DNA of 64,000 bases from Leptolyngbya sp. 'hensonii' (GTDB taxonomy: Bacteria > Cyanobacteriota > Cyanobacteriia > GCF-001939115), in contig NZ_MQTZ01000045.1 in NCBI RefSeq assembly GCF_001939115.1, forward strand, positions 28,395 to 92,394, in the 5' to 3' direction. Below, one piece after another: positions 36,710-41,779 of this stretch (the stretch's first letter is position 1; every line of letters begins with the position of its first letter). The notes below the pieces were generated by a model. The model worked only from the letters and a program-made list of their open reading frames with translations, did no database searches and was not told the DNA's origin. The translations under genes were made by a program, and so were the position numbers.

Positions 36710-39700
36710 TCAGGTGACAATACGAATTTGCGGAATCGGAACATACCAATCCTCCAGAATTTCTCCTGTGATGTCATCTAGCTTCAGGTGCCGGTAGATG
36801 TGGCGAACTATAACCTGTCCCACTTGAAATTGGAATTGTCCTGGAGACAGGTTTTGTCGCTGGAGTCGTTTGACGGCCTCGCGGGATAAGACTCCGATGA
36901 TCTGGTTTTGCTCCGTCCGAATTGTCCACCCAATGCCGTTGCGGGTTGCCATCAATCGCAACGGATCTCCTTCCCGCAGTTTCGTGATCAGGGATTGCTG
37001 TTCCCGCGTGGTCGGATGGCCCAAATTCACATCACCAGGGGTTAAATCCAGATAGAGGAGCCGGGAGGGGCGCTGCTCCTCTACGCCACCATCGGACCGA
37101 TCGGCCAGTCGCTGCAAGGGCACAGCAGTTTCGGCCAGCAGGGGACTTGGTGCAGTAGCACAGAGGATCAGCTCTTCCCTGGCCCTGGTCATGGCCACAT
37201 AGAACAGTCGTCGCTCGGCTTCCAGGTGAGTAGGACGGGAATCAAAGCCATCCGTCAGCAGAACCACCTTCCGGAACTCCAGTCCCTTCGTGCCATGGCA
37301 ACTAGTGAACAGAACGGCATTCTCCTGGGCAAAGGTCGTTCCACTCTGGTTAAACTCAAAAATGGCCGTCAGAATTTCATCTGCACTGATGGCCAGTCCC
37401 TCCTCCAGAGATCCATAATTCCGTTCTTCATCCAAGGTTGCTGCAATCTGCAGCAGAGTCTGGACTGTCGGTTCCTGCTCCCGGCGATGCCAGCTCTGGA
37501 ATTGGGCCTGAAACCAGGACTCTACCGACTCCTGGGCAGTGAAAATACGTCCAGCCCCCACTGCTCTTAACCCCTCTATCAATTGACAGGCGACGAAATT
37601 ACGAATCAGGGGAATCCCCTGATTCTTCAAGGCCCAGGTTTTGATCTGGGCCTGTTCCAGTAAGGCCCGCACCGGACTCAGCCGTTGCCATTGATGGGCC
37701 ACGATCGCAATCTCCTGGGGCAGAACCCCCTGCTGTAGCCAGTCTTGAACCTGCTGACCAATCCAGCCTGCCTGCTGAACGGGATCGGAACAGCACAGCG
37801 CTCGCACGGGCAGGCTCGCCTGTCCCTGTCGTTCCGGATTAATGGCCACCTGTTCGGCAGGCGATCGCTTACAGCGCTGGGAGTTATGCTGAATCAGGGC
37901 ATTGGCCGCCTGGATAATAGATTCGGTGGAGCGGTAGTTCTCAGTGAGCAGGTAACGCTGGGCCTGGTATTCCGTCTCAAAATCCAGGATGTAGCGCCGG
38001 TTAGTCCCCCGAAATTCATAGATATTCTGGTCGTCGTCCCCGATCGCACAGAGGTTAATCTGTACCGATCGGGTTTCATCTTCCGATTGACCGAGACCTG
38101 CAATTAATTGAATCAGGCGATACTCCGTTGCAGCCACATCCTGATATTCATCCACAAAAATATATTCCACCTGGCCCAGGAGTTGCATACGGCGCATCTG
38201 ACTTTCCCCTTCGTCCAGGTCTCTCCCTGGCTCCAGCAGGGCACAGGCATCCTGCAGGATCTGTTCAAAGATGTGGTCATTGAGGGAGTGGAGCTGCCCC
38301 AGAGACTGTCCCAGCAGGGAGAGGGCCAGACCATGAAAGGTGAACACCTGGAGTCGAGACGCCAGCGACCCGACCAATCCCTGTAGGCGCAGTCGCAGTT
38401 CCTGAACAGCATGGCGATTGTAAGCCAGCACCAGAATCCGATTGGGATGCACCCGCTTCACTTTGACCAGATAGGCAATGCGGTGGACGATCGTGCGCGT
38501 TTTCCCTGCACCGGGGCCAGCAATGACCACCATGGCGGGATCATTGGCCTCCACGATCGATCGTTGAGCGGGATTCAGGGGCTGCAGAATGCGGTCATAG
38601 TCCGCCTGGAGAAGGGGGCGTCCCGTCTCAGCCGAGGTGAGATGGGCATAAGCCTGGGCAAAGTCCTCGGGGGAAAGCTGGAAGTAATCAGCGACCAGTT
38701 GCTGGCGGGCGATCGGGTCAGTGGTTTTGCCATAGGCCACCATGAGATGGGTGCGGCGGGCCTGCTCTTGATAATGGATTTGCAGTTGCGAATAACGTCG
38801 GTTGATCGTCGTGACTCTGGCCCTGGGAAAGACTCGTAATTTCAGCGCCTGCTGGAACAAGTTGAGGCCGTCGGTAAGGCGCAGGATCTGCCGCTGATGC
38901 AGCCAGAGCAAGACCGCCTTAAGATCAGTGGTAGTCCAATGGAGCGGTTTGGTTCGTTGCTGAATCTGCTGCAAAATCTCTCCCAGATCATGGTCCAGCC
39001 GGATACGGGTCCCCATCTGCTGACCCAGTTGGGCATACAGGACTTCCAACACAGCCCGAGACAGATCCTGATGTCGGGTTAACCAGTTGGCAGTTTCCAG
39101 TTTCTCCAGCCGGACTGTCCCTGGGGCGATCGGGTGTAACTCAACCCAATTCAACGATCGCCAGCCCGCCAGAATCTCCGACAGCAGGGTGGCGCTGACA
39201 GTCCGGCTGCGGTCCGGATCCAAACGGGAGGCCAGTCCCCGCAGATTAACCTGCAGACTGTCGGCATCCCCCAGCAACAGCAGCAGTTCCTCCAGCAGAT
39301 CCTGCTCCAGCGATCGCAGCCGATCGTGGGCACGGCGGGCATCCCCCCGCACCCCTTTGGTGATCAACAGCGTCAGGGGAATTCTGGAGGAACAAATCCC
39401 GGCCTGCTGGAGTTCCTGAATCCGCTGGGTTAACTCGGAGGCTGGAATCCCAGCTTCATCACTCAGCCGATCGAGGGGAAACGGCTCATCCTGTTTTTGA
39501 CAGTGGGCTTTCGCCAGATGCATGGCATAGATCAACCGACGAAACAATTCCTCCTGCTGAGCCGAGAGCCCATGGTTGCGGCTGTACTGCTCCCATCGGC
39601 GGCAAGATTCCTGGGGATTGGGATGCAGCAGGTTGAACTGAATCAGGGTCGAAAGATTTTCAGCCCGTTCCAGCAAGCGAAATTGTTCCAGATGGTGCAG

Positions 39701-41779: not shown

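What the first reader, a model, noticed from the sequence alone, without database searches (positions are those of the whole stretch)
36710..41779. Exonuclease, RecQ and UvrD helicases in one 1.7-kb-residue-scale protein
Three catalytic modules of opposite helicase superfamilies (SF2 and SF1) plus a DEDD exonuclease, all with intact motifs, in one 1689-residue chain. A single protein that can degrade, unwind and translocate in two modes would be an unusual recombination or fork-processing machine, or a defence nuclease-helicase.
Basis: seen in the sequence. Interest (0 to 1): 0.55.

Follow-up and report, generated by a model that had tools for sequence, protein, structure and literature searches.

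The report
Exonuclease–RecQ–UvrD three-engine DNA protein
One large bacterial protein joins a DNA-trimming domain to two different DNA-unwinding motors; it belongs to a scattered, mobile and apparently unstudied family that may help cells process or attack foreign DNA.

Summary
Window 36710-41779(-) encodes a 1689-residue protein: DEDD exonuclease, RecQ (SF2) core, winged-helix-rich middle, UvrD-type SF1 core and an unassigned C-terminal domain. Motor residues and the four acidic exonuclease residues are conserved. Correction: the catalytic His of DEDDh exonucleases is never His in 94 rows (90 Asn), so "all motifs intact" is too strong.

The gene is rare and scattered: 3 of 292 genomes of the window's phylum, 12 of 247 Bacteroidota, 7 of 199 Bacillota. 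Members also sit on plasmids and in IMG/VR contigs. No partner gene recurs. The genome keeps separate recQ and pcrA genes. Neighbours elsewhere often include known defence genes, with weak statistics.

Best reading: a solitary, exchangeable helicase-nuclease, somewhat more likely anti-foreign-DNA than repair. Function is untested; my literature searches listed no paper on this fusion.

The parts
36710..41779 (-). Whole gene, 1689 aa (P0001); start codon inferred
   Evidence: alternative ATG at 41884
41270..41716 (-). DEDD (DnaQ-like) exonuclease domain, residues 22-170; acidic residues D29, E31, D83, D135; Asn130 where DEDDh enzymes have His
   Evidence: profile match to DinG/ExoX-like/PolC exonucleases; residue counts
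41048..41269 (-). Helical extension of the exonuclease region, residues 171-244
   Evidence: AlphaFold model
40949..41047 (-). Linker; place of the C-x(n)-C-x2-C cluster that all 83 non-cyanobacterial rows have and this protein lacks
39914..40948 (-). RecQ-type SF2 helicase core, residues 278-622 (Walker A K311, DEAH 409-412, QEAGRAGR 597-604)
   Evidence: TIGR00614 313 bits, cut-off 219.8; fold match
38630..39907 (-). Middle region, residues 625-1050, with winged-helix-like elements
   Evidence: profile match to winged-helix regulators E 3e-4; model
37145..38602 (-). UvrD/PcrA-type SF1 helicase core, residues 1060-1545 (K1093, DEYQD 1210-1214, R1283, R1532); Pfam model positions 102-205 unmatched
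36713..37072 (-). C-terminal domain, residues 1570-1689, beta-rich, no assigned family

Best explanation
It is a stand-alone, horizontally exchanged DNA helicase-nuclease. Inferred mechanism: it loads on a DNA end, fork, gap or D-loop; the RecQ and UvrD motors, both expected to move 3'->5', open and reel the DNA; the middle winged-helix region holds the junction; and the N-terminal DEDD domain trims the exposed 3' end. Its most likely use is against invading or replicating foreign DNA, as a single-protein helicase-nuclease defence. Shown: domain order, family-wide conservation of the motor and metal-binding residues, patchy and partly mobile distribution, no recurring partner. Inferred: polarity, substrate, nuclease activity and the defence role.
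For: Residues of all three modules are conserved in 75 rows and again in 20 plasmid and viral-contig rows, apart from one exonuclease outlier, one row that starts after the exonuclease, and one gap at R1532. Patchy spread: 3 of 292, 12 of 247 and 7 of 199 genomes. Plasmids: 29 of 72,556 records match, 17 over at least 80% of the query. Thirteen IMG/VR contigs with matches of about 960 query residues or more; their neighbours match integrases (6 of 135 proteins), DNA invertases (6) and DNA methyltransferases (4). No partner gene. Genome neighbours within two genes (139 proteins, 38 loci) match AbiEi, AbiEii, Drt2, AbiD, a type II restriction enzyme and PDC candidates and McrBC (2 proteins); in the control of 123 proteins at most 2 match at E<=1e-60. 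Plasmid neighbours include DISARM drmA-B-C and Druantia druE, viperin and CRISPR-Cas I-D.
Against: In the window the gene sits among housekeeping genes (ABC permease, SecA, my reading of the ORFs) with ordinary G+C; the only recognised defence gene found is a Cmr6-like ORF 7 kb away (six window proteins scanned). The neighbour contrast is weak: roughly 10 of 139 against 2 of 123 (Fisher p 0.04, with the 10 counted as system names, not as checked proteins) and 4 of 10 plasmid neighbourhoods against 1 of 10 control stretches (p 0.30). The control stretch with CBASS is on one of the same plasmids. The DEDDh His is missing. No assay, no phage data. PADLOC matches to the protein itself are generic helicase matches.
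Confidence: 0.45

Rival explanations
1. An accessory DNA-repair or recombination enzyme that happens to spread by gene transfer. Like WRN or DinG it would process forks, gaps, D-loops or G-quadruplexes, with the second motor stripping proteins such as RecA.
For: Exonuclease + RecQ recalls WRN, and DEDD exonuclease + helicase recalls B. subtilis DinG (abstract of PMC12525004 seen); the exonuclease profile's best PDB match is DinG; RecQ fold matches include WRN and BLM; housekeeping neighbourhood in the window.
Against: Rare and scattered in every phylum sampled, also on plasmids, decayed or IS-split copies exist, and the genome already has RecQ and PcrA.
Confidence: 0.33
2. A replication, transfer or maintenance factor of plasmids and integrative elements, serving the element and not the host.
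For: 17 plasmid records with at least 80% of the query; integrase, invertase and ParB-like neighbours in IMG/VR contigs; three of the ten plasmids read are typed conjugative.
Against: Many members lie on long chromosomal contigs and no replication or transfer gene recurs beside them; five of the ten plasmids read are typed non-mobilizable.
Confidence: 0.15
3. Assembly or gene-prediction artefact.
For: None found; four of the 80 loci run off a contig end and two have shorter ORFs.
Against: Same architecture in 74 of 80 loci as one long ORF.
Confidence: 0.01

Closest known systems
RecQ family helicases (RecQ, RECQL5, RecQL4, BLM, WRN)
   Same: SF2 RecQ core with all motifs, residues 278-622; best fold matches RECQL5 Z 39.5 (rmsd 2.4, 388 aligned) and RecQL4 Z 37.0 (rmsd 4.3, 495 aligned)
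   Different: Sequence match ends at 622; the full-length RecQ model is not reached (347.4 against 640.2 bits); fused to an SF1 helicase
UvrD/PcrA/Rep SF1 helicases
   Same: SF1 core and motifs; fold match to D. radiodurans UvrD Z 39.2 (rmsd 4.2, 455 aligned)
   Different: Equivalog cut-offs not reached (177.4 against 911.2 bits for PcrA); Pfam positions 102-205 unmatched
DinG / DnaQ-like DEDD exonucleases
   Same: Four acidic residues; profile match E 3e-6 to DinG
   Different: His at motif III replaced, mostly by Asn, across the family
WRN
   Same: Exonuclease domain ahead of a RecQ core
   Different: No UvrD module in WRN (recalled); exonuclease subtype differs (WRN is recalled as DEDDy)
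Nhi and Hna anti-phage helicase-nucleases
   Same: Helicase plus nuclease in a defence protein, as described in passages of PMC10732053
   Different: Architecture of those proteins not compared here; domain details only recalled
AddAB, RecBCD, AdnAB
   Same: UvrD-like motor in a helicase-nuclease; fold matches to AddA (Z about 29-30) and RecB (Z about 25)
   Different: Those are multi-subunit with a RecB-type nuclease (recalled); no such nuclease was matched here

Membership tests
RecQ family (TIGR00614) | Curated subfamily score and RecQ core motifs | tested here: met
   313.2 bits against cut-off 219.8; motifs invariant
RecQ orthologue (TIGR01389) | Curated full-length score of the RecQ equivalog | tested here: not met
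   347.4 bits against cut-off 640.2, profile positions 9-335 of 591 only
UvrD/PcrA equivalogs | Curated full-length score | tested here: not met
   177.4 against 911.2 bits (PcrA), 153.7 against 1144.45 (UvrD)
UvrD-like SF1 helicase core (PF00580) | Pfam score and SF1 motifs | tested here: met
   135.8 bits against 23; K1093, D1210, E1211, R1283 in 95 of 95 rows
DEDD exonuclease superfamily | Four acidic metal-binding residues | tested here: met
   D29, E31, D83, D135 in 75 of 75 rows; 93-94 of 94 ungapped rows
DEDDh subfamily | His five residues before the last Asp (recalled definition) | tested here: not met
   0 His of 94 ungapped rows; N 90, S 3, K 1
DpdF (Dpd defence system) | Curated NCBIfam score | tested here: not met
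   221.5 against 550 bits
Anti-phage defence system (in general) | Protection from phage or plasmid when expressed | not testable with these tools
   Only neighbourhood evidence
Nhi / Hna | Homology to Nhi or Hna proteins | not tested
   No sequence of either was compared

The most novel reading that the evidence does not exclude
A new kind of single-gene immunity in which one protein carries an SF2 motor, an SF1 motor and a DEDD nuclease with an Asn-based active site in place of the usual His, and destroys or unravels foreign replication intermediates without partner proteins.
Probability: 0.35. Interest if true: 0.72.

Novelty: new variant of a known kind. Interest (0 to 1): 0.45.

Why it matters
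Annotation hides this family under 'RecQ helicase', yet it is a three-module machine found in ten phyla and on mobile DNA. If it is a defence, it adds a compact helicase-nuclease with two motors in one chain; if it is a repair enzyme, it is a bacterial WRN-like protein with an extra engine. Either way the conserved loss of the DEDDh His with all four acidic residues kept is a direct, testable question about how such an exonuclease works, or whether it only binds DNA ends.

Tried and rejected
Assembly error: rejected. Operon partner: all-against-all BLAST of ORFs near the window copy and 80 loci (one locus, L048, gave no target ORF) found only generic families and one synteny block of three Mariprofundaceae loci. 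Replacement of RecQ or PcrA: rejected, both exist separately. Phage gene: 0 of 50,697 phage records have a place with 80% of the query (25 records match; the 15 listed match by the RecQ part). C-terminal domain: I suspected a HIRAN-like fold; the profile's only PDB-sequence hit was at E 0.15, and the domain was not folded or searched alone. Fold searches were filled by RecQ and UvrD chains, so the exonuclease and C-terminal parts are barely tested there. Recent foreign origin of the window copy by composition: no G+C anomaly. Permease locus in relatives: in 13 relatives' loci no ORF beside the permease matched P0001, flanks of 1.5 kb or less, so the insertion site was not resolved. Literature: nine searches; none listed a paper that I recognised as being on this fusion. 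Passages read: PMC5512222 (other fusions) and PMC10732053; all others seen as listings or starts of abstracts only.

Full report
Observation. The window carries on its minus strand an open reading frame of 1689 residues at 36710-41779. Pfam recognises the RecQ-type and UvrD-type helicase halves. The N-terminal exonuclease has no clear Pfam match, either here or among the families shown for 22 members scanned, but a profile of 30 members matches DinG, an ExoX-like entry and PolC among solved structures. AlphaFold models of residues 1-1060 (mean pLDDT 86.2) and 625-1689 (81.6) match RecQ helicases and UvrD helicases respectively. The middle region resembles winged-helix regulators weakly (E 3e-4). 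The C-terminal 120 residues have no assigned family.

Family. Of these 80, six were left out of the alignment: two with shorter ORFs (L011, L014) and four that run off contigs (L024, L025, L037, L047). In the remaining 74 plus P0001, the acidic exonuclease residues and the Walker and arginine residues of both motors are invariant. Adding nine plasmid and eleven IMG/VR members gave 95 rows: RecQ K311, D409, E410 and UvrD K1093, D1210, E1211, R1283 are in 95 of 95; exonuclease D29, E31, D83 in 94 of 94 ungapped rows and D135 in 93, the exception being L125. One plasmid member (L218) starts after the exonuclease. Left out of these 20: the IS-split plasmid copy L219 and the partial IMG/VR copies L121 and L124.

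A correction on the exonuclease. DEDDh enzymes carry a His five residues before the last Asp (recalled). Here that position is Asn in 90 rows, Ser in 3, Lys in 1, never His. So the module is neither a standard DEDDh nor, by the neighbouring position (N 60, D 13, S 2 of 75), a DEDDy enzyme. Whether it cuts DNA with another base or only binds ends is unknown. A three-cysteine cluster between exonuclease and RecQ is present in 83 of 83 non-cyanobacterial rows and 0 of 12 cyanobacterial rows.

UvrD part. The Pfam UvrD model matches in two pieces, positions 1-101 and 206-271, with the part between unmatched. This suggests a reduced insertion domain; it is an inference from the profile.

Spread and mobility. 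Full-length or near full-length members occur in 3 of 292 genomes of the window's phylum including its own, one of them with two stops; in 12 of 247 Bacteroidota including the centre, one with a stop; and in 7 of 199 Bacillota including the centre, some of them partial or split between contigs. A further divergent member was seen among 39 relatives. Counts from different calls overlap and are not added. Among plasmids 29 of 72,556 records match and 17 hold at least 80% of the query; among phage records none of 50,697 does. A tree of 88 rows groups the cyanobacterial members together but needs four changes for Bacteroidota and four for Pseudomonadota; it has long branches and is not proof of transfer. 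One plasmid copy is split by an IS1634 element.

Neighbourhood. No gene family recurs next to the members. I scanned neighbours within two genes for 38 of the 80 loci, chosen for long flanks: 139 proteins. At E<=1e-15, 56 PADLOC families matched, 25 shown, each in one protein: AbiEi, AbiEii, Drt2, AbiD, a type II restriction enzyme, HNH, several PDC candidates and RecD-like proteins; Pfam adds two McrBC. The control, 123 proteins from 20 arbitrary stretches of carrier genomes (19 from the Bacteroidota and Bacillota carriers, one from the divergent cyanobacterial carrier), gave 27 families, mostly reverse transcriptase and homing endonuclease models in two proteins. At E<=1e-60 I read this as about 10 of 139 against 2 of 123, Fisher p 0.04; the 10 is a count of system names and may overstate distinct proteins. 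Ten of the 15 listed plasmid hits were read with flanks: four have recognised defence genes nearby (Scytonema DISARM drmABC just upstream, Pseudanabaena druE, Nostoc viperin, Thiothrix CRISPR-Cas I-D). The other six show none that I recognised, apart from toxin-antitoxin genes. The same ten plasmids at the opposite side gave one (CBASS) plus an NB-ARC gene I did not count; p 0.30. The gene-side proteins were partly checked with PADLOC and the control side only by annotation, which favours the gene side. IMG/VR neighbours are rich in integrases, invertases and DNA methyltransferases; structural phage genes were not among the 25 of 117 families shown, so these contigs may be integrative elements.

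Own genome and window. A separate RecQ-like gene (485 aa) and a contig-truncated PcrA (843 bits) exist, with two further UvrD-like genes. The gene's own neighbours read as housekeeping. In 13 relatives' permease loci no neighbour matched the protein.

Interpretation. Rare, scattered, partly mobile, solitary, sometimes broken, sometimes near defence genes: this is the profile of an accessory system and fits a single-protein helicase-nuclease defence in the manner of Nhi and Hna, which are described in passages of PMC10732053. Repair or recombination remains a serious rival because the parts resemble WRN and DinG. I give defence 0.45, repair 0.33, element-borne function 0.15. Mechanism beyond domain identity is inference.

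Novelty. Helicase-nuclease fusions are a known kind; this three-module arrangement with an Asn in the His slot is a variant on which my searches listed no paper. Databases already hold it as a RecQ family helicase.

Noticed in passing
window 29001-29879 (+): Cmr6-like type III CRISPR gene (PADLOC E 7e-111); other cmr genes and arrays not looked for.
   Followed up: partly
window 16786-20227 (-): Two overlapping genes, one with a P-loop ATPase motif and one that reads like a PD-(D/E)XK nuclease, in a low-GC stretch (0.416 at 18-20 kb); no PADLOC match. Possible undescribed defence pair; motif calls are my reading.
   Followed up: partly
window 28645-28867: Short repeats spaced mostly 42-43 nt with AACGATCG cores, just upstream of the Cmr6-like gene.
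   Followed up: no
linker of the family, window 40949-41047: Cyanobacterial members lack the three-Cys cluster that all other members have; a metal site lost or replaced in one lineage.
   Followed up: partly
G547:C1:144078-148634: A second, divergent family type (33-35% identity, 1768-aa frame) in a genome of the window's class.
   Followed up: no
L219:7986-14731: A family member on a Nostoc plasmid split by an IS1634 transposase gene, with a viperin gene about 4 kb downstream.
   Followed up: partly
L216:1-7437: DISARM drmA-drmB-drmC just upstream of the family member on a Scytonema plasmid.
   Followed up: yes
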